Shown here piece after piece: positions 1,631 through 22,551 of a stretch of DNA of 51,190 nt. Under the pieces are notes generated by a model that was not told the DNA's origin, searched no databases, and was given only the letters and a program-made list of their open reading frames with translations. Source of the DNA: a virus; the IMG/VR virus record IMGVR_UViG_3300032516_000039, positions 1 through 51,190 of that record; one strand, 5' to 3'. The number at the start of each line of letters is the position of its first letter. Position 1 is the first letter of the stretch. The translations under genes and the position numbers were made by a program.

Positions 1631-2221
1631 ATGGCAATGTGGAAACAAATTAAGGGTTACGAAGGTTTTTACGAAATAAACGAAAATGGGAAAATTAAAA
1701 GTTTGGAAAGGAGCGAACAAACAAGAGGAAGATTCGGGATGATGACAAGGCATAGAAAAGAAATGATTTTATCTCAAAATTTAACTCCGAATGGATATTG
1801 TATAATTGAATTAAATAAAAACAAAGTATCGAGAAGACATTTAATTCATAGACTCGTCTACGATAATTTTATAGGAGATTTGATAAAAGGCAAATTAATT
1901 CATCATAAAGATGAGAATAAAAAAAATAATCATTATTTCAATTTAGAACAAATATCTTTTATAACGCATAACAATATTCATAAACACGAAGCATGGAATA
2001 AGGGATTAAAGGGATTTAGAATTGGAGAAAAAAGAGATCCAAATTGGTATAACGGTGTAAGAAAAAAAGTAAAATGTGTTGAAACTGGAGAAGTTTTCGA
2101 TTCTGTTAATTTAGCGGCATTTGCAGTGGGTTTAAAAGCAAATTCTATAAGTAGGGCTTTACACAATAATAAATATAGGGCAGGGAAATATCATTATGAA
2201 ATCATTAAAGATGCCATGTGA
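1631..2221 (+). CDS. NUMOD4/HNH homing endonuclease
   Basis: A 196-residue free-standing homing endonuclease with a standard layout. The N-terminal NUMOD4 motif reads WKQIKGYEGFYEINENGKIKS. An HNH_3 core follows (HRLVYDNF, then LIHHKDENKKNNHYFNLEQ), in which the HH and N-x-x-NL positions form the metal site. The C-terminal NUMOD1-type DNA-recognition helix (VNLAAFAVGLKANSISRAL) ends the protein. Such genes spread by cutting phage alleles that lack them and usually give no benefit to the phage. The ATG follows AGGAG closely; a second ATG at 1637 has better spacing. It is intact, with no intron visible beside it. Confidence 0.88.
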   Translation: MAMWKQIKGYEGFYEINENGKIKSLERSEQTRGRFGMMTRHRKEMILSQNLTPNGYCIIELNKNKVSRRHLIHRLVYDNFIGDLIKGKLIHHKDENKKNNHYFNLEQISFITHNNIHKHEAWNKGLKGFRIGEKRDPNWYNGVRKKVKCVETGEVFDSVNLAAFAVGLKANSISRALHNNKYRAGKYHYEIIKDAM

Positions 2222-3224: not shown

Positions 3225-3368
3225 AGCCATATAATATGAGAAAACCAGCCATTGTGAGCGAGCCAAAAAAAGCGAGAAAACCAGAGACGGGGAGCGAGCC
3301 AATAAAAGAGAGAAAACCAATAGATGTGAGCGAGCCATAGGTGCTGAGTAAACCACTAACAATGAGCG
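3225..3368 (+). repeat. Array 1: four 36-bp dual-spacer modules (TIGR-like array)
   Basis: Exactly 144 bp, four modules of 36. Loop-type repeats GAGAAAACCA start at 3238, 3274 and 3310, and GAGTAAACCA at 3346. Edge-type repeats GAGCGAGCCA start at 3256, 3292 and 3328. The array opens with a half edge repeat (AGCCA 3225-3229) and closes with the other half (GAGCG 3364-3368). The eight spacers, all 8 nt and all different, are tataatat, gccattgt, aaaaaagc, gagacggg, ataaaaga, atagatgt, taggtgct and ctaacaat. The last loop repeat carries the A-to-T variant. The array lies between the transglycosylase gene and the ParB-like/Tas-like operon. Confidence 0.85.
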
Positions 3369-3408: not shown

Positions 3409-3428
3409 ATAAAACCGAGGTGACCTTG

Positions 3429-4106
3429 ATGGTTACTAAAAAAGTAAAAGCAGTTGAGTTAATATTCGATTGGAATTTATGGCCACGACATGAAGCCGGG
3501 GAATTAGATTCAACGAATATCTCAAAAATGAAACAAGCGATATTGGCAGGAGTAAAACTTCCGCCGGTTATCGTAAATGAAAAAGACAATAGAATTGTGG
3601 ACGGCTTTCACAGAGTGCAAACAGTTCTAAATCTTTACGGAGACGATGCAGAAATTGAAGTAATTTACAAGACTTACAAAAACGATGCTGAAATGTTTAT
3701 CGAATCCGCAAGGATGAATAATCAGCACGGCCTTCCACTTTCCCCACGAGATCGCGCTCATGTAATATTAAAAGCGCGTAGATTTAAAATTCCATTTCCG
3801 GCGATTGCCGAAGCTCTCGGACTTGAAGTTGAAGAGGCAAAGGCTTTTCTTGCTAAAAGGACAGCCAAAAATAGAGACGGCGAAATTGTGACTTTGTCGG
3901 GCGGGGCATTATCTCTCGCGGGAAAAGTATTAACAGCAAAGCAAGAAGAGTACATCAAGAAATGTCCGGGGACAAGCGCACAGCTTTACACGCGGCTTTT
4001 ATTAAACGCGCTCAATGCTGATGCTGTAATTTTCACTGATAAAATTCTTGAAACATTATTGCAGTTAAAAAATAAGATTGAAAAAATACTTGCGGAGGCG
4101 GCATAA
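3429..4106 (+). CDS. ParB/Srx-type N-terminal domain protein with HTH, operon partner of the Tas-like gene
   Basis: Start chosen at ATG 3429, 8 nt after GAGG; a GTG at 3420 would lie inside that site. The 225-residue protein has a ParB N-terminal domain: LPPVIVNEKDNRIVDGFHRVQ at about residues 44-64 holds the conserved vdG-hR signature. A conserved acidic/basic stretch follows (NNQHGLPLSPRDRA, about 98-111), then an HTH-like region (IPFPAIAEALGLEVEEAKAFLA) and a C-terminal helix that could dimerise. ParB domains bind or hydrolyse nucleotides and commonly accompany DNA-binding roles. Its stop overlaps the next ATG by one base, and it lies between arrays 1 and 2, so a job with the arrays is plausible. 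It may also be an independent phage regulator or a defence-related ParB-like protein. Confidence 0.8.
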   Translation: MVTKKVKAVELIFDWNLWPRHEAGELDSTNISKMKQAILAGVKLPPVIVNEKDNRIVDGFHRVQTVLNLYGDDAEIEVIYKTYKNDAEMFIESARMNNQHGLPLSPRDRAHVILKARRFKIPFPAIAEALGLEVEEAKAFLAKRTAKNRDGEIVTLSGGALSLAGKVLTAKQEEYIKKCPGTSAQLYTRLLLNALNADAVIFTDKILETLLQLKNKIEKILAEAA

Positions 4107-4813
4107 TGGAAGATAAAAAAAATCAGTCTCTGCAAATATTAACACGGGCGTATTATGATTATCAGAGAGAGAGAATTTCACTTGATGGACAGATAGGGCG
4201 GCGTAAAGATGGAGAGTTAAAAAAGAACACACCGGACAGAGACGAATCAATGTTGATTTCTCTCATGGAAAGGCGGGCAGTAATTGAAGAAATGGAAAAT
4301 CAGATAGGGAAGGACATTGCAAAGGAAGTTCACTTAACGCCGCTATGGAAGGAATTTCTTGTCAACGTCAAAGGATGCGGCGAAGGAATGGCCGCCGTGA
4401 TAATAACTCAATTTGATATTCATAAATCTTTAACGGTGAGTAATATGTGGAGTTTTGCCGGACTTGCGCCGGGAAAAGATAGACGTGTCAAAGGGCAGAA
4501 ATGCACATACAATCAATTTTTAAAAGCAAAGATGTGCGGGGTACTTGGAAGCGGATTTTTGAAAGCCAATAGTCCTTACAGATCGTTTTATGATGATATG
4601 AAACACCGGCTTGAATCGGCGGACTGGGGAACTTTAAGCAAGAATCCGACAGACAAGAAAAGACCGAAAGCCGGACATCAGCACAAAGCCGCCAACAGGT
4701 ATATGGTCAAGATGTTCATAAAAGATTTATATGTTGCATGGAGGACACTGGAGGGGTTGCCGGTGAGAGAGCCGTATCAGGAGGAGTATCTAAATAAAAA
4801 ACATACGGTATAA
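4106..4813 (+). CDS. Tas-like protein: coiled coil plus Nop/IS110-C-terminal-like domain, no nuclease
   Basis: A 235-residue protein matching the C-terminal half of IS110/IS116 transposases, without their N-terminal DEDD RuvC domain. Residues 1-80 are helical (coiled-coil-like). A helix-hairpin-helix VKGCGEGMAAVII lies at 88-100, SFAGLAPG at 116-123, and a basic C-terminal helix (HKAANRYMVKMFIKDLYVAW, about 193-212) occupies the place of the usual ARKL helix. The catalytic serine segment expected after GLAP is replaced by KGQK, so transposition is unlikely. Nop-domain Tas proteins bind 36-nt dual-spacer guide RNAs and resemble IS110 and box C/D proteins. Array 2 begins 7 bp after this stop. 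With no HNH or RuvC domain it would be a binding-only (TasA-like) form. Alternative: a domesticated transposase fragment. Confidence 0.78.
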   Translation: MEDKKNQSLQILTRAYYDYQRERISLDGQIGRRKDGELKKNTPDRDESMLISLMERRAVIEEMENQIGKDIAKEVHLTPLWKEFLVNVKGCGEGMAAVIITQFDIHKSLTVSNMWSFAGLAPGKDRRVKGQKCTYNQFLKAKMCGVLGSGFLKANSPYRSFYDDMKHRLESADWGTLSKNPTDKKRPKAGHQHKAANRYMVKMFIKDLYVAWRTLEGLPVREPYQEEYLNKKHTV

Positions 4814-4820: not shown

Positions 4821-5360
4821 TGCCACAGGGAAAGAGAAAACCATTGACGAAGAGCGAGCCATAATCGGTGAGAAAACCATGACCATAGAGCGAGCCATTT
4901 TTTATGAGTAAACCAGCGAATAAGAGCGAGCCACAACATAAGAGAAAACCAGAACCTGTGAGCGAGCCATCTACAACGAGAAAACCAATTGGCGTGAGCG
5001 AGCCAAATAATGCGAGAAAACCAATGAAGCCGAGCGAGCCATTTCACCTGAGAAAACCATGATAAACGAGCGAGCCATCGGGCGGGAGAAAACCAGCAAC
5101 CGTGAGCGAGCCAAAGCGATAGAGAAAACCAGTGTAAAAGAGCGAGCCATCAATAATGAGAAAACCAAAAATTTCGAGCGAGCCAACAAAGTAGAGTAAA
5201 CCAGCGATAATGAGCGAGCCAAAATATGTGAGAAAACCATTAAAGAAGAGCGAGCCACTTAACAAGAGAAAACCAGTCAAGGAGAGCGAGCCAGTTTATG
5301 GGAGTAAACCATGGTGTTGGAGCGAGCCATAACAGAGGAGAAAACCACTTTCAATGAGCG
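4821..5360 (+). repeat. Array 2: fifteen 36-bp dual-spacer modules (TIGR-like array)
   Basis: Exactly 540 bp, 15 modules without a single indel. Loop repeats (GAGAAAACCA, or GAGTAAACCA at 4906, 5194 and 5302) start every 36 bp from 4834 to 5338. Fourteen full GAGCGAGCCA edge repeats lie midway, bounded by half repeats TGCCA (4821-4825) and GAGCG (5356-5360). All 30 spacers are 8 nt and none repeats, from cagggaaa and ttgacgaa at the left to taacagag and ctttcaat at the right. Conserved 10-mers with hypervariable 8-mers fit guide segments and not ordinary tandem duplication. The array follows the Tas-like gene and ends at a terminator, so + strand transcription from the ParB-like/Tas-like operon is likely. 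Confidence 0.9.
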
Positions 5361-5396
5361 AAATATAAAGGGGCAGAAAAGCCTCTTTATATTTTT
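5361..5396 (+). terminator. Rho-independent terminator closing array 2
   Basis: Bases 5361-5374 and 5381-5394 form a 14-bp stem with one G-T wobble and an AGAAAA loop, followed by a short T-rich tail on the + strand. It begins on the base after the terminal GAGCG. The opposite strand has no T-run beyond the stem, so the array is read in the + direction. Confidence 0.8.
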
Positions 5397-5944: not shown

Positions 5945-6706
5945 ATGAAATTTAAGAATTTACTGACAGATAAAAAAATCGCAATCATCCAATGTCGCAT
6001 GGGTAGTAATCGCCTGCCCGGCAAAGTCCTTGCTGATATCGGGGGCAACCTTTCTCTCGATATTCTCATAAGCAGACTTCAAAAATCAAAGCTGATAAAT
6101 AAAATTGTTTTAGCGACTACATTAAATAAAGAAGATGATATTCTTGAATATTTCGCTCAGGCAAAAGGTATATCCATTTATAGAGATAACGCGGATGTAT
6201 TAAAAAAGGTCTGTAATACGGCGGATAGTTCCAAAGCAGACTTGATAATTGACGTAACCGGAGACTGTCCTTTTATTGATCCGGTGGAAATCGACAAGCT
6301 GATTTTAAAATTGTATTTATTTGATTGCGATTACGTCAGCAATATTTTTCCGCGCAACTTGCCGATAGGATTTGACATTCAGGTTTACAAAAAAATTATA
6401 TTAACCCAGATAAATACATTTGTAATTGATAAAGCACATCGCACTCATTCAGGTTGGAATATTTTGAACAAAGCGGAAATGCTGGGATTAAAAATAAAAA
6501 ACAACAAAATAATAAAAAGATTTTATCATCCCGAATGGCGGATTGTACTTGATTACATGGAGGATTTAATCTTGCTCAATAAGATTTACAATCATTTCGG
6601 GCATATAGATTTTTCACAGTGGGACGTAATCCGGCTACTTGAAAAGAATTTAGAGTGGTTGGATATAAATAAAAATTGCAGGCAGAAAAAACCTGAGGAA
6701 ATTTAA
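5945..6706 (+). CDS. SpsF-like cytidylyltransferase (CMP-sugar synthetase family), copy 1
   Basis: A 253-residue nucleotidyltransferase with a Rossmann-like GT-A fold. The N-terminal signature CRMGSNRLPGK (about residues 18-28) is the nucleotide-binding loop of the SpsF/NeuA/KdsB group, and DVTGDCPFIDP (about 99-109) carries the metal-binding aspartates. Relatives activate acidic or amino sugars as CMP-sugars for surface glycans. It resembles the gene at 12095 in length and motifs (both have TGDCP and LDYx(D/E)D), so the phage carries two diverged paralogues. Its stop codon abuts the left half repeat of array 3. Confidence 0.8.
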   Translation: MKFKNLLTDKKIAIIQCRMGSNRLPGKVLADIGGNLSLDILISRLQKSKLINKIVLATTLNKEDDILEYFAQAKGISIYRDNADVLKKVCNTADSSKADLIIDVTGDCPFIDPVEIDKLILKLYLFDCDYVSNIFPRNLPIGFDIQVYKKIILTQINTFVIDKAHRTHSGWNILNKAEMLGLKIKNNKIIKRFYHPEWRIVLDYMEDLILLNKIYNHFGHIDFSQWDVIRLLEKNLEWLDINKNCRQKKPEEI

Positions 6707-6708
6707 TT

Positions 6709-6816
6709 TGCCATATCTGTAGAGAAAACCAAGATAATAGAGCGAGCCAACAACCGGGAGTAAACCAATAACAATGAGCGAGCCAAAAGGCAAGAGAAAA
6801 CCAGTGGAATTGAGCG
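6709..6816 (+). repeat. Array 3: three 36-bp dual-spacer modules (TIGR-like array)
   Basis: Exactly 108 bp, three modules. Loop repeats start at 6722 (GAGAAAACCA), 6758 (GAGTAAACCA) and 6794; full edge repeats at 6740 and 6776; half edge repeats TGCCA at 6709-6713 and GAGCG at 6812-6816. Spacers: tatctgta, agataata, acaaccgg, ataacaat, aaaggcaa and gtggaatt. No spacer equals one in the other arrays, though ataacaat and array 1 ctaacaat differ only at the first base. It sits between two sugar genes with no terminator after it, so it is probably transcribed within the sugar operon. Confidence 0.85.
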
Positions 6817-6857
6817 TATTTTAAAAATTATTAAAAAATTAAACAGTGGGTATAAAT

Positions 6858-7805
6858 ATGTACAATGTTTTGATTGTCGGAGCTGGCAGTGTCGGAACTT
6901 CCAAGCCGGATAAGTACGATTCACCGCTGACAGAAAATATCCTTACACACGCGCACGCGGTTTATAATAATGACGATTTAAAACTCATCGGGGTTGTCGA
7001 TAAGGATTTAAAGAAAGCAAAAAAAGCCGGTGACAAATGGAGTTGTAATTATTACGGAAATATAAACGAGTGTAAAGATAAGATTGATATCGTAGTTTGT
7101 GCGGTCAACACCGAATATCATAAAGAGGTGATGAAGCAGATTATACAAATTGATCCGCGTATTGTAATTGCTGAAAAGCCATTGACGAATAGTTATAAAG
7201 ATTGTCAATACATAATTGATTTATACGCTGGAAACGGAATCCCGATTGCAGTAAATTTTCCGCGCCGGTATATCCCGGAGATTCAAAACTTAATGATATC
7301 TTTACGCAAAAGAAAAATACAGAATATAAATGTCCAGTATGTCAGAGGCTTCCAGCGGGACGCCTGCCATGCGATAGATTTACTCAATCAATTTCTCGGT
7401 GAATATAAAGACGGATGGATTTTAAATGTTGAAGAGATACTTGATAATCCAGATGACGCGACTTTGACAGCACATTTAATTTATGACAAATGTGATAACG
7501 TAATAATTCAGGGATGTAACGGAAAGCATTATTCGGTATTCGATATTAAGATCATGGTTGATAACGGGCTGATTGAAATAAAATCACATAGTAGCGTAGT
7601 TTATTTTTACGGGTTAAAGGCGACAGAGTATGGAAATTTCAAATCGCTTGATTATGGATTTGACGGATTTTACACAAGCATGAATAAGCATTTAATTTAT
7701 CTTTACAAAAATGTCGTCAATCATTTAAAGCATAAAGAAAAATTGATATGCACTGGCGCGGACGCGTTGAAGGTGCAGAAAATTTATAAGGAGATCGGAT
7801 TATGA
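6858..7805 (+). CDS. Gfo/Idh/MocA-family sugar oxidoreductase
   Basis: A 315-residue NAD(P)-dependent enzyme. The Rossmann motif GAGSVG is at about residues 7-12, and the family signature AEKPLTNS lies near residue 100 (EKP is the cofactor/substrate-binding motif). Length is typical (300-370). Such enzymes oxidise or reduce nucleotide sugars or inositols; with the adjacent DegT gene (4-bp overlap), a keto-sugar for transamination is a reasonable product. Start set at ATG 6858, which begins directly with the Rossmann strand; a GTG at 6846 adds four residues. It follows array 3 by about 40 bp. Confidence 0.82.
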   Translation: MYNVLIVGAGSVGTSKPDKYDSPLTENILTHAHAVYNNDDLKLIGVVDKDLKKAKKAGDKWSCNYYGNINECKDKIDIVVCAVNTEYHKEVMKQIIQIDPRIVIAEKPLTNSYKDCQYIIDLYAGNGIPIAVNFPRRYIPEIQNLMISLRKRKIQNINVQYVRGFQRDACHAIDLLNQFLGEYKDGWILNVEEILDNPDDATLTAHLIYDKCDNVIIQGCNGKHYSVFDIKIMVDNGLIEIKSHSSVVYFYGLKATEYGNFKSLDYGFDGFYTSMNKHLIYLYKNVVNHLKHKEKLICTGADALKVQKIYKEIGL

Positions 7806-9157
7806 AACTCGCCATAAATGGAGGCCCAAAAATCCGCACAAAGCTATTTAATCCGCAACCTTCCATCGGAGTTGAAGAGATCGCGGCGGTTACGAAGTTT
7901 ATAACTCAGGACGATGTTTTACTTTCGGGGTTTCGCGGGAATAATACGGATGCCTTCTGGGGCGGGCCACAGGTCAGAAAGTTTGAAGCTGACCTCGGAA
8001 AATATCTTGGTTGCAGTCAGGTGCTTGCTGTCAATTCTTGTACGTCCGCGCTTCATATTGCTTGTGGGGCAATCGGTTTAAAGCCTGGAGATCAGGTAAT
8101 AGTTACGCCGTGGAGTATGAGCTGTTCGGCAACCGCGCCGATGGTGTACGGTGCAATCCCAGTATTTGCAGACATTGAAAAAGATTTTTTCTGCCTTGAT
8201 CCTGAAAGCGTAGAATCTAAAATCACAGACCGGACAAAGGCGATAATCGTAGTTGATTTATTTGGATTGCCTTACGATGTCGAGCGGATAAATGCGATTG
8301 CAGAAAAGCATAATCTTTATGTAATAGAGGACGCGGCGCAGGCTCTGGGATCGGAATACAACGGCAAGAAGTCAGGAACGCTCGGGCATATCGGATGTTT
8401 TTCTTTTACGCAGGGGAAGCATCTAACTTGTGGAGAGGGCGGGGCGATAGTGACAGCGGATAAAGATTTATATTTAAAGTGCGCCGCGTTACGGAATCAT
8501 ATCGAGGCGGTTACAAACGGGATGACCGATAAACAACTTGTAAATTATTACGGTGTATCAATGGCTGGATACAATATGAGAATGACGGAATTAAACGCGG
8601 TGATAATGCAGGAGCAGTTGAAAAAACTTGATGGCTATGTTAAAGATAGAATTACAAATGCTGAATTTCTTTATAAAGGCATTTGTGAAATACCATTCAT
8701 AAAATCCGCATTCGAAATAACACCGCCATTTCCGGAAGGAGATAAATGTCGGACTGAATGGATTGGATTCGACAATTATCCTCATTCATTCTATTGTCAG
8801 GCTTTTCATTATGATAATAATTTATCTGATGGGATACACCGGAATAAATTTATCGAAGCTGTCAAGGCGGAACTGGTCGGGGATAGACAGCGGATTGACA
8901 GAGGCGTTCCGATATCAACCGGTTACATAACACCGCTTTATAAGTTTCCGGTATTCCAATATAATCTGCATTGGACACTTCAACAGCACAAGACGGATTA
9001 TAGAGACGTATTTTTGCCGGTTGCCGAAGAGTTACACAATAACGAATTATTTATCAGCCTTTATCATGGGCTTGATTTAGACCTTGACGATTTAATGGAT
9101 ATTGTAAACGCATTTAAAAAAGTTGCTGATAATATGGATGAATTGAGAACAAAATAA
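7802..9157 (+). CDS. DegT/DnrJ/EryC1 (ArnB-type) sugar aminotransferase
   Basis: A 451-residue PLP enzyme. NSCTSALH (about 78-85) binds the phosphate, EDAAQALG (about 176-183) contacts the pyridine ring, and Lys206 in SFTQGKHLTCGEGG is the Schiff-base lysine. These enzymes transfer an amino group from glutamate to a keto-sugar nucleotide. The gene overlaps the oxidoreductase by 4 bp, giving an oxidise-then-aminate pair as in bacterial amino-sugar and nonulosonate pathways. It is somewhat longer than usual (370-400), with extra sequence in the C-terminal third. All key residues are present. Confidence 0.88.
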   Translation: MKLAINGGPKIRTKLFNPQPSIGVEEIAAVTKFITQDDVLLSGFRGNNTDAFWGGPQVRKFEADLGKYLGCSQVLAVNSCTSALHIACGAIGLKPGDQVIVTPWSMSCSATAPMVYGAIPVFADIEKDFFCLDPESVESKITDRTKAIIVVDLFGLPYDVERINAIAEKHNLYVIEDAAQALGSEYNGKKSGTLGHIGCFSFTQGKHLTCGEGGAIVTADKDLYLKCAALRNHIEAVTNGMTDKQLVNYYGVSMAGYNMRMTELNAVIMQEQLKKLDGYVKDRITNAEFLYKGICEIPFIKSAFEITPPFPEGDKCRTEWIGFDNYPHSFYCQAFHYDNNLSDGIHRNKFIEAVKAELVGDRQRIDRGVPISTGYITPLYKFPVFQYNLHWTLQQHKTDYRDVFLPVAEELHNNELFISLYHGLDLDLDDLMDIVNAFKKVADNMDELRTK

Positions 9158-9181
9158 AATAAAAATAAAAGGAGATAGTAT

Positions 9182-9655
9182 ATGTTTAAAAGATTTAAAA
9201 GAGTAATAAAATCATGGTGCGGGATAGCTCTTGATAATTTGGAAGAGCCGATATCAACAATGGAAGCAATCATTGAAGAATCGAAAGGGGCTATTTACAA
9301 GCTGTATGTAAGTCTTGAACAGGTCAAGGAATCAATTTTAAAACTGGATAAAGTAAAATCAGATACTATATCGCCTGAAATGTTGGCAAAGGAAAAAGAA
9401 AACCTTAAAAAGTATGAAGAGAAATTAACAAAAGATATTTCTAAGTATAAAACAAAAATATTAGAATATAGCCGTAAATTGGAATACATGAAAGCCAAGA
9501 ATGAAGCCCTTTCCGCTATACTTAAAATTAAAGAGAATATATCAAATGTAAACTCGTCAAATGCGATATCTACATGGAACAGGATGGAAAAGAAAATATC
9601 GAATAAAGAAATAAAAATAAAAGCCTATGAAGACATGGACGATTTTGAAGTTTAA
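9182..9655 (+). CDS. PspA/IM30-like coiled-coil protein
   Basis: A 157-residue protein resembling the N-terminal two thirds of phage-shock protein A: MFKRFKRVIKSW as membrane-touching amphipathic helix, DNLEEPISTMEAIIEES (about 19-35) like the LDxxEDPxKM region, then a long lysine/glutamate coiled coil (about 60-115). PspA proteins protect membranes under stress and form ESCRT-III-like polymers. A phage copy could guard the host membrane during infection or act as decoy. Shorter than PspA (about 220). Strong ribosome site GGAG at -8. The next gene begins inside its 3' end. Confidence 0.65.
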   Translation: MFKRFKRVIKSWCGIALDNLEEPISTMEAIIEESKGAIYKLYVSLEQVKESILKLDKVKSDTISPEMLAKEKENLKKYEEKLTKDISKYKTKILEYSRKLEYMKAKNEALSAILKIKENISNVNSSNAISTWNRMEKKISNKEIKIKAYEDMDDFEV

Positions 9656-10226
9656 AGTTAGATATGTATTATTGTCGTTTATATTTCTGTATGGATGTGT
9701 CAACGGCAAAGGATGTAATGAAAACTATATTGAAGATTTGCCTGAAGTTTATTTCGATGCTTATACTTTTATAATAAATGGCGAATCTATAAACAAAGAA
9801 AGTAATTATTACAATATCCCATATTCAACAAAATGTCCTTGCGATATAAACGATAATAATACAACGTCTAATCTCAAAATTATAAATAAAAATAATGGAG
9901 AGAAAATAGAGGATTTAAAAGTTACTCAAGACGGAGTGAAAACAAAAATAGGTTTAATATTTAGAGTTGTAAGTAGCGATAGTACGGCATATAGTACAAA
10001 GCTAAAGATAGTATATTACGAATATGATATTACTGAAAAAGAAAATGACATGAGTTATATTATAATACTTTTATGGTTAGCTGGCGTAATGATTATGATA
10101 CTTATTGCTGCGTTATATGTAATAGACGCAGGTCTAAAATATAGAGACAGGAAAGAAAGAGAAAAAATCAATGATGTAACAAAAAGAAATATAGTAGAAT
10201 TTATAATTAAATCTGAAAAATATTGA
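9627..10226 (+). CDS. Lipoprotein-like single-pass membrane protein (199 aa)
   Basis: The N-terminus has a hydrophobic stretch ending FLYGC (lipobox-like, Cys about residue 24), a central extracytoplasmic part of about 115 residues with CPC and CNE cysteines, and a C-terminal transmembrane helix (IIILLWLAGVMIMILIAALYV, split here at about 145-165) followed by a basic cytoplasmic tail. It overlaps the PspA-like gene by 29 bp and may form a membrane pair with it. No family recognised. Very AT-rich. Confidence 0.6.
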   Translation: MKTWTILKFKVRYVLLSFIFLYGCVNGKGCNENYIEDLPEVYFDAYTFIINGESINKESNYYNIPYSTKCPCDINDNNTTSNLKIINKNNGEKIEDLKVTQDGVKTKIGLIFRVVSSDSTAYSTKLKIVYYEYDITEKENDMSYIIILLWLAGVMIMILIAALYVIDAGLKYRDRKEREKINDVTKRNIVEFIIKSEKY

Positions 10227-10227
10227 T

Positions 10228-10401
10228 ATGAATATGCTTGTATATATTATTTTTATACCTATTCTGTTATATACTTTTTATGTTATATACGAAGACATTA
10301 TGAAGGATAAAAAAATTATGATAGCAAAAAATTACAAGATTGATAAAATAAGACATGAAAGAGATATAATAAATATGGTAATGAAGTCAGATGAATTTTA
10401 G
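10228..10401 (+). CDS. Small membrane protein (57 aa)
   Basis: An ATG two bases after the previous stop begins with one transmembrane helix (LVYIIFIPILLYTFYVIY) followed by a charged tail rich in Lys, Asp and Glu. No strong ribosome site, so coupling to the gene upstream is likely. Its N-in/C-out arrangement is unknown. It could be a partner of the lipoprotein-like gene. Confidence 0.5.
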   Translation: MNMLVYIIFIPILLYTFYVIYEDIMKDKKIMIAKNYKIDKIRHERDIINMVMKSDEF

Positions 10402-10412
10402 GAATAATTAAG

Positions 10413-10979
10413 ATGAATAAAAAAAACACAGTAACACTTATCCCGATGTTTTACCACGAGATTTATTTAAAGTTAATTTCAAACTGGCGGAATATGCCGG
10501 AAGTGAAAAAGACTTTAAGATCGTACCTTGACACGAATCAAGACAATCAAAAAGATTTTGTCGACAGGATAAGAAAATCCAATGATATGTATTATTACAT
10601 AATGCAATCAGAGACTAACGATTCGAGTTACACCGATAAAGAATACAACACCGATCCACGTAAATATATAAATACGCTTGTTGGATATTGTGGACTGGAT
10701 AAAATACATCAGGCAAACAGGACGGCGGAAATAAGTCTTTTAATCGCGCCTCAATTTCAAAGGGCTGGTCACGGACTGAGCGCGGTAAAATTATTGTTAT
10801 TAAAAGCGTTCGATGAAGTGAATTTGAATTTGATATTTGCAGAGACTTACTTCGGCAAGGAGTTCTGGATTAAGTGCGGATTTAAACAGGACGGCATAAT
10901 GAGAGATCGGAAATATTATGCAGACAAGTATCATAATTCTTATATGCTAAGCATAACAAGACAGGAGTTTTACAAATGA
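10413..10979 (+). CDS. GNAT-family N-acetyltransferase 1
   Basis: A 188-residue GNAT enzyme of the RimJ/RimL type. LIAPQFQRAGHGLSAVKLLL (about 109-128) carries the acetyl-CoA loop (Q/R-x-x-G-x-G/A), and GFKQDG near residue 157 is the usual C-terminal strand. In this cassette it probably acetylates the amino group made by the DegT enzyme, as LegH/PseH-type enzymes do, but protein acetylation cannot be excluded. It overlaps the NeuB-like gene by 4 bp. Confidence 0.78.
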   Translation: MNKKNTVTLIPMFYHEIYLKLISNWRNMPEVKKTLRSYLDTNQDNQKDFVDRIRKSNDMYYYIMQSETNDSSYTDKEYNTDPRKYINTLVGYCGLDKIHQANRTAEISLLIAPQFQRAGHGLSAVKLLLLKAFDEVNLNLIFAETYFGKEFWIKCGFKQDGIMRDRKYYADKYHNSYMLSITRQEFYK

Positions 10980-11614
10980 ATAATATTTTTATTTTAGATT
11001 TTGGTAGTGGAAATACTTGTAAAAATAATTATGTTACAATTCAGCGGATGATAGACGAGATTGCGGATATAGATTATGATAGAAAGTTTATAATTAAATA
11101 TCAGCTTTTTGAAAAGGCTGGAAATAACATACCTCTTTTTCTAAGCTGTTTTAATAAGGCTTATGAATATGCTGAAAAACTCGGATATCAGACTACAGCG
11201 AGCGTTTTTGATATTAACAGTTTGAACTTTTTAATGAATTTCGACGTGCCATTTATAAAAATAGCTAACCGTCCAGAATTATATCATCTTATCGGAGAAG
11301 TACCTCGGAAAATACCAGTATTGACAAGTGTCAAAGATCAATGGTATAATCCGATAGATGTGCAATTTTCAAATACTTTGGCCTGCGTTTCAAATTATCC
11401 GGCGAAGATAGAATATTACGAAAAGAATTTCTCAGTCAATATTTTAAAAGCCGGAATCAGCGATCATACGGAGGGCTGGGATCTGTTTGAAAAGTATCTG
11501 CCACGGATTTATGAATGTCATTTTTGCTTAGAACATGATAACAATAATCCAGACGCGGGGCCATTTGCGAGAACGCCTGAGATGTTAAAAAAAATACTCG
11601 GAGTTATGAAATGA
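10976..11614 (+). CDS. NeuB-like (nonulosonic acid synthase) TIM-barrel domain, no SAF domain
   Basis: A 212-residue protein resembling the barrel of sialic/legionaminic acid synthases: the second strand region KYQLFEKAG, a FIKIANRPEL strand and turn, SDHTEGWDLF (like the gYSDHTxG motif) and YECHFCLEHDN (like the metal-binding xEkHfxLd). Full NeuB proteins have about 340 residues with a C-terminal antifreeze-like SAF domain; here the gene stops after the barrel, and the N-terminal strand is short. It may be a specialised or partly degenerate synthase. The gene between GNAT and cytidylyltransferase genes supports a nonulosonate-like route. Confidence 0.68.
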   Translation: MNNIFILDFGSGNTCKNNYVTIQRMIDEIADIDYDRKFIIKYQLFEKAGNNIPLFLSCFNKAYEYAEKLGYQTTASVFDINSLNFLMNFDVPFIKIANRPELYHLIGEVPRKIPVLTSVKDQWYNPIDVQFSNTLACVSNYPAKIEYYEKNFSVNILKAGISDHTEGWDLFEKYLPRIYECHFCLEHDNNNPDAGPFARTPEMLKKILGVMK

Positions 11615-11796
11615 AAATAGAATTAGATGAAAAATGTGTATTTACATATTCCAAAGAAGATTTGAGTATTCATATTCATAGACATACAGAAAAAAGATAT
11701 TCTGGTAAAGTAGAATATGAAGGCAGTTTACGATTTTTCGATAAAGCACAAATGTCACAATTTTTAGAAATGATGGAATTATGTTTAAATAAATAA
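11611..11796 (+). CDS. Small hypothetical protein (61 aa)
   Basis: Starts in a 4-bp ATGA overlap with the NeuB-like gene. Predicted beta-rich with His-containing strand (LSIHIHRHTEKRYSGK) and a C-terminal helix (QMSQFLEMMELCL). No known domain. Confidence 0.55.
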   Translation: MKIELDEKCVFTYSKEDLSIHIHRHTEKRYSGKVEYEGSLRFFDKAQMSQFLEMMELCLNK

Positions 11797-11876
11797 AGTG
11801 AACAATTGCATATAACATATGAGTTATAAAATGAAAAAAATTCAGTCGTGTTTAAAACAATGTAAGGAGAATATTC

Positions 11877-12080
11877 ATGTTTAGAACATGGTGGATAATA
11901 ATATCGGGTGTGGTAGTATTAGCGTCGGGCGTATATCTTGTTATTAAAAACGAATATCATGTTATCATTATTATATTATGGATATTTTGGTATATAGATA
12001 GAATGATGGAAGATTTAGAAAAAGAAGGCCGGAAACTGCAAAAGAAATATGATGATTTTAGAAAACGCCATGGAATATAA
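11877..12080 (+). CDS. Small two-helix membrane protein (67 aa)
   Basis: AAGGAG precedes the ATG. Two hydrophobic segments (about residues 4-23 and 27-42) are followed by a charged amphipathic tail (DRMMEDLEKEGRKLQKKYDDF). It may be a small accessory membrane protein of the glycan cassette. No family recognised. The 80-bp gap before it holds only a 17-codon frame. Confidence 0.6.
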   Translation: MFRTWWIIISGVVVLASGVYLVIKNEYHVIIIILWIFWYIDRMMEDLEKEGRKLQKKYDDFRKRHGI

Positions 12081-12094
12081 ATAGGAGATATTAA

Positions 12095-12862
12095 ATGAAA
12101 AAGATTGCAGTAATACCCATCAGAGACGATTCGACCAGACTGGAAAGGAAGGCCACCGGATTTAAACTTTACAAGAATTTTACGCCGATTGAATGTATTA
12201 TGAAACGGCTCGAATTAAGCAAAAGGCTTGATGATATTATCTTCATATCACCGGCCACGGCGATAAATAAAAGTATAGAAAAGATATGTAAGAAAAACGG
12301 GTATAAATACTATGCAGGGTCAACGAACGACATATCAAGACGCGCTCTCGAAGCGGTTGAATACTCAGATTGCTGTATGGTTGACATTACGGGCGATTGT
12401 CCGCTTGTCGATCCGCTTCAGGTAGACCGGCTTTTATTCGAGTATGAACGGAATAAGAAAAGTTGGCCAGATATTGAATATCTTTATATTACGAACATCT
12501 TGACAAGATCGTATCCGGACGGATTTGACATTCAGGTATTCGATTCAAAGCTCTTGGAATTGGCGCGTAACATATCAATTGATAAAAAAGAAATTACAAA
12601 TTACGGCTGGGATATAATGCACTATTCAGGATATATCAATGCTGATTTTCGGATATTGAATTTCCCGGCAAGTGAGGAGTATTGGTTTCCGAGGTGGGGA
12701 TTGACTCTTGATTATCAAGACGATGTTTTTCTATTACAAAAAGTATATCAGCATTTTGATAATTTCAAGTTCACCTGCGAGGATGTAATAGAGTTCATCA
12801 AAAAGAATGAAAATATATTAAAAATAAACGAAGAATGTGAAAGGAAAATATCGGGGGAATAA
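12095..12862 (+). CDS. SpsF-like cytidylyltransferase, copy 2
   Basis: A 255-residue protein of the same family as the gene at 5945. The nucleotide-binding loop is altered: IPIRDDSTRLERKATGF (about 7-23) in place of RMGSxRLPGK, keeping the Arg and Lys but losing LPGK, while VDITGDCPLVDP (about 106-117) keeps the metal aspartates. Altered loop plus intact metal site suggests another nucleotide or sugar, or reduced activity. Ribosome site AGGAG. Copies 1 and 2 could activate two different sugars. Confidence 0.75.
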   Translation: MKKIAVIPIRDDSTRLERKATGFKLYKNFTPIECIMKRLELSKRLDDIIFISPATAINKSIEKICKKNGYKYYAGSTNDISRRALEAVEYSDCCMVDITGDCPLVDPLQVDRLLFEYERNKKSWPDIEYLYITNILTRSYPDGFDIQVFDSKLLELARNISIDKKEITNYGWDIMHYSGYINADFRILNFPASEEYWFPRWGLTLDYQDDVFLLQKVYQHFDNFKFTCEDVIEFIKKNENILKINEECERKISGE

Positions 12863-12865
12863 ATT

Positions 12866-13084
12866 ATGAATACAGCATCTTTCAAATTATCGAAATTGGA
12901 TTTATTTGAATTGATAGGAATGCCTTTTCTTCTGGCTGATATACAAAAAATAGAAGTATACCACGATCATTTGAAAATATTTATTGCAGGAATAGACAGC
13001 AGGATTCCAGAAGGTGAAAATTTTGAAGAGAGTTATGTAATCCATAAAAAGACCGAAGCGTATTTTAAAAAGATTGAGGTATAA
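12866..13084 (+). CDS. Small hypothetical protein (72 aa)
   Basis: ATG three bases after the preceding stop, with GGGGGA as ribosome site inside that gene. The N-terminus is helical and hydrophobic (LSKLDLFELIGMPFLL), the remainder mixed with charged residues. No domain recognised. Confidence 0.5.
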   Translation: MNTASFKLSKLDLFELIGMPFLLADIQKIEVYHDHLKIFIAGIDSRIPEGENFEESYVIHKKTEAYFKKIEV

Positions 13085-13086
13085 TA

Positions 13087-13257
13087 ATGCAGATTGGTGA
13101 AACACGGCACGCGGAAGTAATGTATTATGAACATAATACAGAATGTGATATGTGTGATAAAAAATCATCTTGCATTATTATAAAAACGCTCGGAACTGAT
13201 TGTTTATGTATCTGTATAGATTGTCTTGAAAATATAGTAAAGGAAAGTGGATTATAA
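13087..13257 (+). CDS. Small cysteine-rich protein (56 aa), probable zinc ribbon
   Basis: A 56-codon frame between two genes with a 1-bp overlap to the next. Cysteines are arranged as CDMC, a single C, then CLCIC and C, seven in all, typical of a small metal-binding domain. Comparable pattern to HNH or treble-clef scaffolds, but no catalytic motif. Function unknown. Confidence 0.55.
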   Translation: MQIGETRHAEVMYYEHNTECDMCDKKSSCIIIKTLGTDCLCICIDCLENIVKESGL

Positions 13258-13928
13258 TGTTAGGTATATCAATAGGCTCTGTTCACAAGATAGTCGGAGA
13301 CGATAAAGACCGCAACGAATATATAAAGTATATCAGAGATTGCGGATTAAAATTCGAGGCGATTGAATTGAACGCGCTTTGTAGTGACTTCAGATTGACC
13401 AATGATAACAGGACTTATTTAGATACGATGAAGCACGTATCAATTCACTTGCCGGTTGTGGATTATGATTTCTGGAAAGTATTACAGCAATATGATTTTA
13501 AATACTGGGTGGGACATTCCGATGTAAATTATAACGATGAAGATTTAATTGAAATTGAAGACGACGATATTATGCTAATTGAAAATCTGGATGCAGAAAC
13601 ATTATTAAAAATACCGGAAAATTATTTTAATGAACTCATAGAGAATTTTGATATCTGCTTCGACATATCCCACGAATTAAGCAAAGGACTTGACCTCTGC
13701 AAGTTTAACCTTGCTATGTATAAAGACAAAATAAAAGAGATACACATATCCGGATATAACAAAAAATGTCACGTACCTTTTTATTATGGGACACTACTTG
13801 AAATAGCAGAGTCATTAAAAAGGAATAATCTTTTAGAACTTCCGATAATCATGGAATATAATTTCGATAATCTTGAAGAAATGGAACATGAATATAATTT
13901 ATTAAAGGAAACATTATGTATAAAATAG
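13257..13928 (+). CDS. TIM-barrel protein of the sugar isomerase/AP-endonuclease-2 type
   Basis: A 223-residue protein with alternating strands: MLGISIGSVHK start, FEAIELNAL, VSIHLPV, FDICFDISHE (metal-type D-x-H), IKEIHISGYN and LPIIMEYNF (Glu at a metal-ligand position). That order fits xylose isomerase-like barrels, which epimerise or isomerise sugars using divalent metal. In this cassette an epimerase/isomerase step is plausible. Short for the family (250-300). Overlaps the downstream GNAT gene by 13 bp. Confidence 0.6.
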   Translation: MLGISIGSVHKIVGDDKDRNEYIKYIRDCGLKFEAIELNALCSDFRLTNDNRTYLDTMKHVSIHLPVVDYDFWKVLQQYDFKYWVGHSDVNYNDEDLIEIEDDDIMLIENLDAETLLKIPENYFNELIENFDICFDISHELSKGLDLCKFNLAMYKDKIKEIHISGYNKKCHVPFYYGTLLEIAESLKRNNLLELPIIMEYNFDNLEEMEHEYNLLKETLCIK

Positions 13929-14449
13929 AACCGTTGACTAAAGAACACAATTATAAAAAAATTGCTGGATGGTTTAATGATCCGATATTAAATAAATATA
14001 CAAGCCATAGAACGAAAAATATGTCTGATGAAGATGTGCAATATTATATTTATACTCTTGAAATTGTAGAAAATAAAAAAGCGTGGGCTATTTATGAAAT
14101 ATTTACTTTTTGCGGAACATCTGAATATAAGCATTACGGAAATATAAGTTTGCAAAATATCAATAATATAAATCGTTCGGCGGAAATAGCCTGGATGATA
14201 TCAGAGCAAGGGAAAGGGGCAGGGACGGAAGCCGGAAAGCAGGTGCTTGATTATGCTTTTAATATTCTCAATTTAAATCGTGTCTGGTGCGGGTGTGTTA
14301 AAGAAAATATTGGCATGGTAAAACTTGCTGGAAAGCTGGGTATGAAACAGGAAGGGATATCCCGCGAGGCTTTTTTCCTTGATGGTCGATATACAGATAT
14401 AATACAATTTGGAATTTTGAAAGGGGAATGGAATGAACATAAATCTTGA
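13916..14449 (+). CDS. GNAT-family N-acetyltransferase 2 (RimJ/RimL-like)
   Basis: A 177-residue GNAT enzyme: GNISLQNINNINRSAEIAWMI strand region, the acetyl-CoA loop GKGAGTEAGKQVLDYAF (about 98-114), LNRVWCGCVKEN, then LGMKQEGISREAFF. This matches PseH/LegH-like and RimJ-like enzymes that acetylate amino sugars or protein N-termini. Close to the MAF gene (17-bp overlap), an amino-sugar substrate is the natural guess. Distinct from GNAT 1, so two acetylation steps or substrates are possible. Confidence 0.8.
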   Translation: MYKIEPLTKEHNYKKIAGWFNDPILNKYTSHRTKNMSDEDVQYYIYTLEIVENKKAWAIYEIFTFCGTSEYKHYGNISLQNINNINRSAEIAWMISEQGKGAGTEAGKQVLDYAFNILNLNRVWCGCVKENIGMVKLAGKLGMKQEGISREAFFLDGRYTDIIQFGILKGEWNEHKS

Positions 14450-17099
14450 AAATAATCTCAAAGTAATAAGAAAGGTAAGCAAGAATCTTGCCGATGATAT
14501 TAAGAAATCATCTTGTACATGGGCGGAAATAATAAAGTCGAAGAACGGCAAGAACAATCTATACATAAATAAAAACAACCGTCCGGCGTATGCTTACAAT
14601 CCTGAAAATCCGATGAAGTCCGCAAAGATGATCGGCAAGCAGAAAGTATTTTATAAAGACACGGCCACGATGATTATCGGTATGGGTCTGGGACATACGG
14701 CATACGAAATTTTAAAACATAAAGAGAAAGGCCACAGGGTTTTTATAATCGAGCCTACTTTATGGATGATGAAAATGGCGTTCTCTGAATATGATTTCTC
14801 GAAATACATAACTGACGGAAGTCTTGTAATAGCAACCTCGAAAAATGATGTTGTCTATCTGTCAAACGTACTTGATACGCTCTATGTTATTCAGGATTGG
14901 ATGACAATCACGGAGCAGTATATTTTAACCTGCGAAGAATATAAAGAGATCGGCCAGTTTGCGCTTGAAATTATAAATCAGTTGCGGTGCAATACGGGAA
15001 CGGTGATGGGCGCGGGCCACATTATCGCAGAAAACGATATCAAGAATCTGCCGTATGTTATCAGGCATAGAGGGGTTATCGATTTAAAAGACCTGTTCAA
15101 GGGCAAGCCTGCAATATCCGTAAACACCGGCCCGTCATTGGCAAAGAATATCCATCTGCTTAAAGATGTCGCTGACAAGGTCGTTATTATTGCCGTAGCG
15201 CAAGCATTAAGAATATTACTTGCTTATGGTATCAAGCCAGATTTTATCTGCACGGTGGATTATGGTAAGGTTAACAAGGAACATTTTAACGGATTATTTG
15301 ATGAAAAGGATGTAAATCTCGTTTGTCTCAATCGGACATACGCGCCGATTATAAAGCAATGGCAAGGAACAAAGTTTATCGCCGGCACGCCGTGTCCAGG
15401 GTTTGAAGATTTTACAAAGGTATTACAGAGCAAGGGATTTTTAGAGCAGGGCGGAAGCGTGTCTCATATGAATCTGGGGCTGGCTTTACATCTTGGATGT
15501 GATCCGATTCTGGTCATAGGTCAGGACTTCGCGTATAGTCCGGATTTTCTTTCACACATTGAACAAGTGGACGCGGGCGGTCAGGTCAAGATTGATAACG
15601 GTATGTTGAAGTGGAAAATTAAAGATCCCAGGTCGAGTATAAAGACCGGAACTCATCCGATGGGCGGGGTTGTAATGGTTGACGGGTTACTCGGTGAATC
15701 AGTACCCACGAATATCGGACTTGCTTCGTTTATTTTATCATTTGAACGGATAATCGAAGGCAAGGGAAACAGGGTTATCGATTGCACTGAAGGCGGGGCA
15801 AAGAAGAAAGGCTCAATCCCGATGACACTGGAAAAGGCAATATCGGAATACTTAAAAAAGCCGATTGATAAATCAGTCATAGAACCGTTTAAGACAATCG
15901 ATCCGAACGCTGAAAAGTTGGTTGATGAAAGTCTTGAAGTATTGGTCAAAGACATTGAAAACCTTAAAAATATAATCGAACATTCGGCCGCGGGGCTGGC
16001 GACTTGTGAGGATATAAAGACAGCCATTAAAAAGCGTAAACGCAGTAAAAATAAAGATATTTATACAAAGAAAATTGACAAACTGCTGGAAGTGAATTTA
16101 AAACAAAGTCAGGACGCGCACGAATGCACGCTTAAAAATAACCTCATGGGAGTATCGATATTCCATGCCAGCCGAAGGATTAACGCACGGGATCTGGCTG
16201 TTTCCGGAAAGAATACCTACAAACAGAATAAAGAGGATTTACTCAATATACGGATCAAGCGGAACGAGACTATTTTGACAGCGGTGAAGGATTCTGCCGA
16301 AAAGCTATTGCCGATTTACAAAAAAACATATACTATATTAAAGAAGTACAAAGACACTGGAGATTTGAGCTTATTGGAAACGCCTATAGAAGAGACGATA
16401 AACTTGAAAGACGCCGATAAATATTTCAAGGTTGGCAACTGGGCTCATCCACTGGTTGATGCTGAAAAGGTTCTGAAAAAGCATAGCGATCTTGAAGCGC
16501 ACGAAATAATGAAAAAAGCGTGGGAGATGAGAGGATACGCCATTAACAAGGCGAAGGAATTATACAAGACCGAAAAGAGACAGGACCTCATAGACTACAA
16601 TGAATGGTGTGAACAATCTTACAAGCTCGGAAGGGCTGGAGACTTTAAAAAAGCCCTTGACTTTTTGATAAAGGCATATAAACTCAATCCAGACAAAGAG
16701 CGGGCGCGATGGGGGCTATCTAATACGTATTTCAGGCTCGGAAACATAGACAAGTGCATTGAATATTTCGAAGGGCTGGTCAAGGATTTTCCGGACGTAC
16801 TTCAATATCAATTTGAACTTGGTATTGTGACATTTGAAAAGGACTTGAACAAAGGAATTGAACTCATCACGGCCTTAATGGCCAAGACTGAATTATACGA
16901 TTATTTCTTTAAGGATTTGGGTCAGTTATTTATGGAATCCGGACAAACTGAAAAGGCGGTAGTTGCTTATGAGAATTACATTTCGAAGTATCCCGCTAAT
17001 TATGAAATATATAAAACTCTTGCGACACTTTATAAAAAACTGGGAGATATTAAGCAATCAGATAAAATGGATAAAATCTATAAGGAAATGACAGCTTAA
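14433..17099 (+). CDS. MAF/DUF115 (MptE-like) glycosylation protein with C-terminal TPR domain
   Basis: An 888-residue protein. The N-terminal part has a Rossmann-like segment (GMGLGHTAYEIL, then VFIIEPT), followed by the DUF115/MptE-like core with ISVNTGPSLAKN, FICTVDYGK and PILVIGQDFAYS (about residues 220-360). This is the fold of Maf proteins, which move nonulosonic acids onto flagellin or other proteins. Residues about 725-888 form TPRs (LGRAGDFKKALDFLIKAY; LGNIDKCIEYF; SGQTEKAVVAYENYI) suited to binding an acceptor protein. It ends the sugar cassette, so transfer of the phage-made sugar is its likely role. Acceptor unknown: virion, flagellin or host surface protein. Confidence 0.82.
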   Translation: MNINLENNLKVIRKVSKNLADDIKKSSCTWAEIIKSKNGKNNLYINKNNRPAYAYNPENPMKSAKMIGKQKVFYKDTATMIIGMGLGHTAYEILKHKEKGHRVFIIEPTLWMMKMAFSEYDFSKYITDGSLVIATSKNDVVYLSNVLDTLYVIQDWMTITEQYILTCEEYKEIGQFALEIINQLRCNTGTVMGAGHIIAENDIKNLPYVIRHRGVIDLKDLFKGKPAISVNTGPSLAKNIHLLKDVADKVVIIAVAQALRILLAYGIKPDFICTVDYGKVNKEHFNGLFDEKDVNLVCLNRTYAPIIKQWQGTKFIAGTPCPGFEDFTKVLQSKGFLEQGGSVSHMNLGLALHLGCDPILVIGQDFAYSPDFLSHIEQVDAGGQVKIDNGMLKWKIKDPRSSIKTGTHPMGGVVMVDGLLGESVPTNIGLASFILSFERIIEGKGNRVIDCTEGGAKKKGSIPMTLEKAISEYLKKPIDKSVIEPFKTIDPNAEKLVDESLEVLVKDIENLKNIIEHSAAGLATCEDIKTAIKKRKRSKNKDIYTKKIDKLLEVNLKQSQDAHECTLKNNLMGVSIFHASRRINARDLAVSGKNTYKQNKEDLLNIRIKRNETILTAVKDSAEKLLPIYKKTYTILKKYKDTGDLSLLETPIEETINLKDADKYFKVGNWAHPLVDAEKVLKKHSDLEAHEIMKKAWEMRGYAINKAKELYKTEKRQDLIDYNEWCEQSYKLGRAGDFKKALDFLIKAYKLNPDKERARWGLSNTYFRLGNIDKCIEYFEGLVKDFPDVLQYQFELGIVTFEKDLNKGIELITALMAKTELYDYFFKDLGQLFMESGQTEKAVVAYENYISKYPANYEIYKTLATLYKKLGDIKQSDKMDKIYKEMTA

Positions 17100-19674: not shown

Positions 19675-20175
19675 ATGAAATTAGAAATAATCAGTAAAAA
19701 ATACGGGATTAAAACAATCGTAATCGACGATGAAGATTATAATAAAATTAAAGATTATAAGTTACATATTATTTTTTGCAAAAAGAGTAAAGGTTTTTAT
19801 GCGAGGGCATACAAGAAAAAAACAGAATGTGAAACGAGAAAACAATATTATCTACATAGATATTTGGTCGATTGTCCCAAAGGTAAAATAACAGACCATA
19901 TTAACGGTGACTCCCTTGATAATAGAAAACAAAATTTAAGAATTTGTGATGGGTCTGAAAACATATGTAATTCAGGCAAAAGAGATATGGATTCAACATC
20001 AAAATACAAGGGAGTTAGTTTTGTTAAAAAGGAAAAAAAGTGGCAAGCGGCAATAATGAAAAATAAACAGACGAAATTTTTAGGCCATTTTATAAAAGAG
20101 ACGGACGCGGCTATGGCATATAATCAAGCGGCAATAAAATATCACGGTGAATTTGCACGATTGAATGAAATATAG
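19675..20175 (+). CDS. HNH homing endonuclease with AP2 DNA-binding domain
   Basis: 166 residues. The HNH_3 core is at LHRYLVDCPKGKITDHINGDSLDNRKQNLRI, with catalytic DH, then N-x-x-NL; the AP2 domain (STSKYKGVSF, KKWQAAI, FLGHFIKETDAAMAYNQAAIKY) follows. This is a widespread phage homing endonuclease class. It sits immediately behind the terL terminator. No intron or intein flanks are apparent, so it is a free-standing mobile gene. Confidence 0.9.
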   Translation: MKLEIISKKYGIKTIVIDDEDYNKIKDYKLHIIFCKKSKGFYARAYKKKTECETRKQYYLHRYLVDCPKGKITDHINGDSLDNRKQNLRICDGSENICNSGKRDMDSTSKYKGVSFVKKEKKWQAAIMKNKQTKFLGHFIKETDAAMAYNQAAIKYHGEFARLNEI

Positions 20176-21948: not shown

Positions 21949-21960
21949 TATAGAGAATAT

Positions 21961-22551
21961 ATGAAAGAAACGAGCAAATATAAAACGTACACGGAAACTG
22001 GGCTGGCCAAATGTTCGATACATGGCGAACACAATGAATGGTCGAAACAGAATGGCCATCAAATACGGAAAGGAAGAGAATATAAGTGGAATGGTTTGGA
22101 GTGTTTAAAATGTAGCCGAGAAAGACAAAAAGCATGGAGAGAAGAACATCCCAATTATCAAGACAGATATAGATTTACATGGCGGGGGACAATATCACGC
22201 GCGTTAGCATATGCTCAACGAAGAGCAAAAGATAAAAAACTTCCTTTCGAGATAAATTCCGAATGGATGATAAATATGTTAAATAAACAAAACAGTAGAT
22301 GTTTCTATTCTGGAATAGAATTTGAATGGGAAAAATCAATCAATGGAAAGCCAAGATATAAACTTGTTTCCATAGATCAACGGGTTGCGGGTAAGGGATA
22401 TACTAAAGATAACAGTGTTCTTGTGTGTTGGGGTATAAATTTAATGAAACATGAAATACCATTAGATCAATTTATTGAATTTTGCAAAAGTGTTTCTTCT
22501 ACGCAAAAAGAGAATATAATGATTAAATTAGCAATGGAGGTAGGGGCATGA
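21961..22551 (+). CDS. Zinc-finger HNH-type endonuclease
   Basis: 196 residues. The N-terminal zinc segment has CSIHGEH then CLKCSRERQKAWREEHPN; the C-terminal part carries RCFYSGIEF and VSIDQRVAGKGYTKDN, a variant of the phage HNH pattern C-Y-S/T-G, S-L-D-R-I-D. Free-standing mobile endonuclease, inserted between two virion genes. The usual catalytic His-Asp pair is not obvious, so it could be inactive or divergent. AT-rich compared with its neighbours. Confidence 0.7.
   Translation: MKETSKYKTYTETGLAKCSIHGEHNEWSKQNGHQIRKGREYKWNGLECLKCSRERQKAWREEHPNYQDRYRFTWRGTISRALAYAQRRAKDKKLPFEINSEWMINMLNKQNSRCFYSGIEFEWEKSINGKPRYKLVSIDQRVAGKGYTKDNSVLVCWGINLMKHEIPLDQFIEFCKSVSSTQKENIMIKLAMEVGA

What the first reader, a model, noticed from the sequence alone, without database searches (positions are those of the whole stretch)
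4106..4813. A nuclease-less, compact Tas-like protein
The protein has a coiled-coil-like N-terminus and a helix-hairpin-helix/GLAP domain but neither RuvC, HNH nor the IS110 catalytic serine segment. If it binds guides it would bind DNA without cutting, which suits gene regulation, transcription blocking of rival phages or recruitment of another effector such as the ParB-like partner.
Basis: inference. Interest (0 to 1): 0.85.

Follow-up and report, generated by a model that had tools for sequence, protein, structure and literature searches.

The report
Phage TasA: RNA-guided DNA binder without nuclease
This phage gene makes a small protein of the recently described TIGR-Tas family that should use 22 neighbouring two-part guide RNAs to find DNA without cutting it; it is a good new example of a published kind, and what it targets is still unknown.

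Summary
ORF 4106-4813 (235 aa) passes the curated NCBIfam TIGR-Tas model (141 bits, cut-off 100). Its AlphaFold model matches, from end to end, only the Nop domain of TasH and TasR (Z 21). Nothing is left over for HNH or RuvC, and no serine lies opposite the IS621 'ESG' serine. It sits beside three TIGR arrays totalling 22 units of 36 nt, with edge GAGCGAGCCA, loop GAG[A/T]AAACCA and 8-nt spacers. The repeats are almost those of Salicola phage CGphi29, whose array is experimentally proven.

The upstream ORF is a ParB-fold protein that overlaps tasA by 1 nt. All 13 TasAs of the window's clade carry this partner, and TasA and TasParB distances correlate at r = 0.90. Solo-Nop TasA and tasParB-tasA operons were both reported by Faure et al. 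2025 (PMC12045711), so this is a new member of a known kind.

Function remains inferred: RNA-guided, non-cutting DNA binding, with TasParB probably acting at the bound site. No natural target was found: no spacer pair matches the phage itself, none is shared with relatives, and matches to related viral DNA are no more frequent than for mispaired controls.

The parts
3226..3367 (+). TIGR array 1: 4 units of 36 nt, opening with truncated edge repeat GCCA and closing with truncated edge repeat GAGC
3429..4106 (+). tasParB: ParB-fold partner (225 aa from the ATG at 3429; GTG at 3420 also possible), overlaps tasA by 1 nt (TAATG)
   Evidence: phrog_1033 E 1.4e-13; AF2 pLDDT 95; KorB/Noc/ParB fold, Z 11-12
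4106..4813 (+). tasA: solo Nop-domain Tas protein, 235 aa, no nuclease domain
   Evidence: NCBIfam NF052498 141.4 bits over cut-off 100; TasH 1e-13 and TasR 5e-11; fold Z 21
4822..5359 (+). TIGR array 2: 15 units of 36 nt (edge GAGCGAGCCA, loop GAG[A/T]AAACCA, 8-nt spacers), truncated edges at both ends
5360..5395 (+). Rho-independent-type terminator hairpin directly after array 2
   Evidence: -18.3 kcal/mol, z -5.9
6710..6815 (+). TIGR array 3: 3 units, same repeats, between a cytidylyltransferase gene and an oxidoreductase gene
   Evidence: neighbours

Best explanation
The gene is tasA of a phage-borne TIGR-TasA system of the TasParB-linked subclade. Transcripts of the three arrays are cut, in a TasA-dependent way by a host RNase, into 36-nt tigRNAs. 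A TasA dimer holds each tigRNA by its edge and loop repeats, and the two 8-nt spacers pair with opposite strands of one adjoining DNA site of about 16-18 bp. TasA lacks a nuclease, so the site is opened and bent but not cut. TasParB, co-translated with TasA, most likely acts on or spreads from the bound site and makes the block (transcription or replication) more than local. Shown here: family membership, absence of a nuclease domain, array anatomy, compensatory pairs in the edge repeat, and a phylogenetically stable TasParB link. Inferred from characterised relatives: tigRNA binding (about 0.95) and guided non-cutting DNA binding (about 0.85). Guess: TasParB as the effector that acts at the guided site (about 0.5). 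Targets are unknown.
For: NCBIfam TIGR_Tas model 4e-41, above curated cut-off. Sequence matches to TasH 1e-13 and TasR 5e-11, profile about 1e-27. Fold: TasH and TasR Nop region Z 21 over 193-224 residues, IS621 Z 15, Nop5 Z 8. 22 units with truncated edges and a terminator, the layout given for TIGR arrays in PMC12045711. Repeats and 8-nt spacers almost equal to those of Salicola phage CGphi29, the SpTIGR locus from which 36-nt RNAs were pulled down. Edge pairs 4:7 (C:G in 44 loci, T:A in 5, no C:A or T:G consensus) and 3:8 (G:C 40, A:T 5, G:T 2) change together. TasParB in 13/13 of the window clade, 11/17 of the sister clade, 0/22 of the far clade; Mantel r 0.90, 0/5000 permutations. Cassette genes are shared while most phage backbone genes are not.
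Against: No biochemical data for this protein. No natural target identified: exact A+rc(B) matches with 0-2 nt gap in 1.3 Mb of related viral DNA number 4 against a mispaired mean of 1.7, reached in 4 of 40 controls. No match in the phage's own 51 kb at one mismatch or fewer in the TasR geometry. A role for TasParB at guided sites rests on genome neighbourhood and co-divergence alone. Edge covariation is counted over related loci and inside a search pattern that allowed only C/T and G/A at those positions.
Confidence: 0.6

Rival explanations
1. TasA plus TasParB work as an RNA-guided DNA bender that helps integration, recombination or packaging of the phage, rather than silencing targets.
For: TasR bends target DNA by about 180 degrees and PMC12045711 suggests TasA may aid integrases; TasA shares its fold with IS110 recombinases, Z 15.
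Against: 22 different guides is many for a site-specific aid; none points to the phage itself; no integrase was recognised among the ORFs I annotated, though not every ORF was searched.
Confidence: 0.1
2. TasParB is the cutting partner: a ParB/Srx-superfamily nuclease that TasA brings to guided sites, so the system does cleave DNA.
For: TasParB tracks TasA; ParB/Srx superfamily members with enzymatic activities on conjugative plasmids exist (Osa; ref. 113 of PMC12045711); the Osa chain appears at Z 3.9.
Against: The best structural matches are the clamp and repressor proteins KorB, Noc and ParB, Z 11-12; the far TasA clade lacks it altogether (0/22).
Confidence: 0.12
3. RNA-guided partition: TasA marks sites on the phage or plasmid genome and TasParB spreads there for segregation.
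For: TasParB has the ParB fold and PMC12045711 notes the ParB link.
Against: No self-target in 51 kb; no ParA gene was recognised near the cassette in the ORFs examined; the contig may be incomplete.
Confidence: 0.08
4. A decayed IS110 transposase piece with no guide function.
For: PHROG 4285 is labelled 'transposase'; Pfam shows a weak Transposase_20 fragment.
Against: Above the TIGR-Tas cut-off and far below the IS110 one (15 bits against 140); conserved full-length family beside arrays in most relatives.
Confidence: 0.02

Closest known systems
TIGR-TasA with tasParB operon (Faure et al. 2025, PMC12045711, fig. S14)
   Same: Solo Nop protein, ParB-like gene in the same operon, dual-repeat arrays with 10-nt repeats upstream and downstream
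   Different: Nothing qualitative found; this locus has three arrays, one of them inside a run of sugar genes. Whether this contig was in their table could not be checked
SpTIGR, Salicola phage CGphi29 TasH
   Same: 36-nt units, 8-nt spacers, edge AAGCGAGCCA against GAGCGAGCCA; 29% protein identity over residues 66-229
   Different: The CGphi29 protein carries an N-terminal HNH nuclease; the window protein does not. CGphi29 loop is AAGACAACCA
TaTasR (PDB 9mty)
   Same: Nop domain fold, Z 21 over 193 residues
   Different: TasR residues 1-106, which hold its RuvC domain, have no counterpart here; its spacers are 9 nt
IS110 / IS621 bridge-RNA recombinase
   Same: Related RNA-binding fold, Z 15
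   Different: No DEDD/RuvC domain, no serine opposite the IS621 ESG, arrays instead of one bridge RNA
KorB / Noc / ParB (for the partner)
   Same: ParB N-terminal fold plus helix-turn-helix region, Z 11-12
   Different: GFHR in place of the usual GERR motif and no ENxxR (motifs of classical ParB from memory), so CTP use is uncertain

Membership tests
TIGR-Tas (Tas protein) | Protein passes the curated family model | tested here: met
   NF052498.1 141.4 bits, cut-off 100
TIGR-Tas (Tas protein) | Nop domain fold | tested here: met
   AF2 pLDDT 91.7; TasH/TasR Z 21, Nop5 Z 8.2
TIGR-Tas (Tas protein) | Adjacent array of alternating edge and loop repeats (8-12 nt) with 8-9 nt spacers, 36-nt units, truncated edges, terminator | tested here: met
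   22 units in three arrays; each array begins with GCCA and ends with GAGC; strong terminator after array 2 only
TIGR-Tas (Tas protein) | Edge repeat has a covarying extra pair besides the box C/D pair | tested here: met
   Positions 4:7 and 3:8 covary over 53 loci
TIGR-Tas (Tas protein) | Arrays yield 36-nt tigRNAs bound by the protein | not testable with these tools
   Needs pull-down and small-RNA sequencing
TasA subtype | No HNH or RuvC nuclease domain | tested here: met
   Whole chain used by the Nop alignment; no nuclease family hit beyond the TIGR-Tas model itself, which covers only the Nop region
TasA-TasParB operon | parB-like gene in operon with tasA | tested here: met
   1-nt overlap; ParB fold; 13/13 in clade
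IS110 transposase | Passes the IS110 family model | tested here: not met
   15.4 bits against cut-off 140
IS110 transposase | Catalytic serine after the GLxP segment | tested here: not met
   GLAPGKDRRVKGQK holds no Ser
ParB CTPase (for TasParB) | ParB fold | tested here: met
   Z 11-12 to KorB, ParB-CDP, Noc
ParB CTPase (for TasParB) | CTP binding and clamp closure | not testable with these tools
   Motif differs (GFHR); needs biochemistry

The most novel reading that the evidence does not exclude
TasA-tigRNA is a programmable loader for a ParB-type clamp: 22 guides choose DNA sites in rival elements or the host, TasParB loads there and spreads, and so silences or blocks replication of the target without any cut, an RNA-guided counterpart of KorB-like long-range silencing.
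Probability: 0.2. Interest if true: 0.85.

Novelty: new member of a known kind. Interest (0 to 1): 0.4.

Why it matters
TasA is the commonest and least understood Tas protein, and its natural targets are unknown (PMC12045711). This locus is compact, has 22 guides and a partner that co-diverges with it, and lies in a clade where the TasParB link is complete (13/13). That makes the question of what TasParB does at a guided site testable. A naming hazard also shows: the NCBI model calls every such protein an 'endonuclease', which is wrong for this one.

Tried and rejected
Target search in about 1.3 Mb of related viral DNA with 583 unique spacer pairs from the window and its relatives: exact A+rc(B), gap 0-2, 4 hits against a mispaired mean of 1.6-1.7; other geometries (rc(A)+B, A+B, B+A) no clear excess. 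At one mismatch true pairs exceed controls at all gaps, including gaps outside the tolerated range, so this is a composition or parsing effect, not targeting. One exact match of window unit 4894 lies in relative L013 but is a T-rich run. Four window units scanned over all of IMG/VR gave 25-85 places each, with the favoured gap differing from unit to unit; no listed locus took an exact match from a second scanned unit, and one further unit (3226) matched once. I read these as chance, with no mispaired control for these scans. No spacer pair is shared with any relative. A decayed IS110 origin was rejected. TerL found only one other contig of the same or a near-identical virus, too short to cover the locus. 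Pfam and PADLOC gave no useful family for tasA or tasParB. Mycobacterium phage Rich and Rhodococcus phage Peregrin hold weak Tas-like hits (24-25%), but no array was found within 3 kb.

Full report
Observation. The ORF at 4106-4813 is real and encodes 235 aa. The window is an IMG/VR virus record with terminase and tail sheath genes.

What the protein is. It passes the curated NCBIfam model for TIGR-Tas proteins (NF052498.1, 141.4 bits, cut-off 100; IS110 model 15.4 bits against 140). By sequence it matches the solved TasH (1e-13) and TasR (5e-11) chains, in the Nop part only. A profile of 53 relatives raises this to about 1e-27 and also touches IS621 and ISCro4 weakly. An AlphaFold2 model with mean pLDDT 91.7 aligns to TasH residues 63-298 and TasR residues 107-316 at Z 21, to IS621 at Z 15 and to archaeal Nop5 at Z 8.2, in each case spanning nearly the whole model. 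The nuclease parts of those proteins have no counterpart. The NCBI name 'endonuclease' should therefore not be carried over to this protein.

The guides. Three arrays on the same strand hold 4, 15 and 3 units, 22 in all, each unit being 10-nt edge, 8-nt spacer A, 10-nt loop and 8-nt spacer B. Each array opens with a truncated edge (GCCA) and closes with one (GAGC). Array 2 is followed by a strong terminator (-18.3 kcal/mol, z -5.9), but the ends of arrays 1 and 3 do not fold significantly. The published description of TIGR arrays gives this layout (PMC12045711). As a positive control, the CGphi29 array, which that paper characterised with its TasH, has edge AAGCGAGCCA, loop AAGACAACCA and 8-nt spacers. 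Across 53 loci the edge positions 4:7 and 3:8 change in a paired way, as reported for TasR edges. The search pattern restricted the letters at these positions, and related loci are not independent, so this is supportive rather than decisive.

The partner. The ORF at 3429-4106 overlaps tasA by one base. Its model (pLDDT 95.1) has the ParB fold, nearest to KorB, ParB and Noc at Z 11-12. In the TasA tree (quick tree, SH-aLRT support), all 13 members of the window clade have it, as do 11 of 17 in the sister clade and none of 22 in the distant clade. In 12 of the 13 members of the window clade the two genes overlap by 1 to 17 nt; in the thirteenth, L015, an array lies between them. Pairwise distances of the two proteins correlate at r 0.90 (0 of 5000 permutations; within the window clade 0.54, 8 of 5000). 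ParB relatives without TasA exist, and none of those loci showed an array.

Mobility. The relatives share the TasParB-TasA cassette and arrays with the window, but other than a few scattered genes they do not share its phage backbone. No spacer pair is shared even with the closest relative at 78% TasA identity. The inference is that the cassette moves between phages and its spacers turn over.

Targets. In TasR, spacer A pairs with one strand and spacer B with the other, with at most a 2-bp gap and 8-nt 3' overhangs. From this I derived the target order spacer A + reverse complement of spacer B. No window pair matches its own genome within one mismatch in that geometry. Across all relatives there is no clear excess over mispaired controls. 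Four whole-collection scans gave scattered places without a consistent gap. This agrees with the paper, which also could not name natural targets. Absence here is weak evidence, since the targets may not be in the collection.

Mechanism. The best-supported account is a TasA dimer carrying a 36-nt tigRNA that binds paired 8-nt half-sites on opposite strands without cutting. What follows binding is not shown. The tight and old link to TasParB makes action of TasParB at the bound site the most economical guess.

Novelty. Solo-Nop TasA, its 36-nt RNAs and tasParB-tasA operons are published (PMC12045711). This locus is a new member. Its added value is the completeness of the TasParB link in this clade, the co-divergence test, and a negative target survey.

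Noticed in passing
window 5945-13928: A run of nonulosonic-acid-like sugar genes (two cytidylyltransferases, Gfo/Idh/MocA oxidoreductase, DegT aminotransferase, GNAT, NeuB-like piece) followed by an MptE-like/TPR protein (14433-17099). Array 3 sits between the first two genes of this run.
   Followed up: partly
L008 2574-3287; L075 12148-14941: Two other TasA loci also carry sugar-modification-type genes just after the cassette (33%, 26% and 27% identity to the window's), so the neighbourhood may recur.
   Followed up: no
window 1631-2221, 1144-1479, 19675-20175, 21961-22551: HNH-type homing-endonuclease-like ORFs; the first has NUMOD4 and HNH_3 domains, the last two were only seen in the ORF list.
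   Followed up: no
window 4106-4813 (NCBIfam NF052498.1): The model named 'TIGR-Tas system RNA-guided endonuclease' covers only the Nop region and so labels nuclease-less TasA proteins as endonucleases.
   Followed up: yes
L334 (Microcystis phage Mvi-JY20, record 21367-22500): A cultured phage with an unannotated TasA (32.6% identity) and a 36-nt dual-repeat array ending in a terminator-like hairpin: a possible wet-lab model.
   Followed up: partly
L102, L103, L104: TasA plus arrays on contigs binned as Thermoplasmatota, Spirochaetaceae and Dehalococcoidia MAGs; these may be viral or misbinned.
   Followed up: no
window 3429-4106 (TasParB residues 59-62): G-x-H-R motif, invariant at G, H and R in 32 relatives, as in sulfiredoxin rather than the GERR of CTPase ParBs (motif comparison from memory; alignment).
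   Followed up: partly
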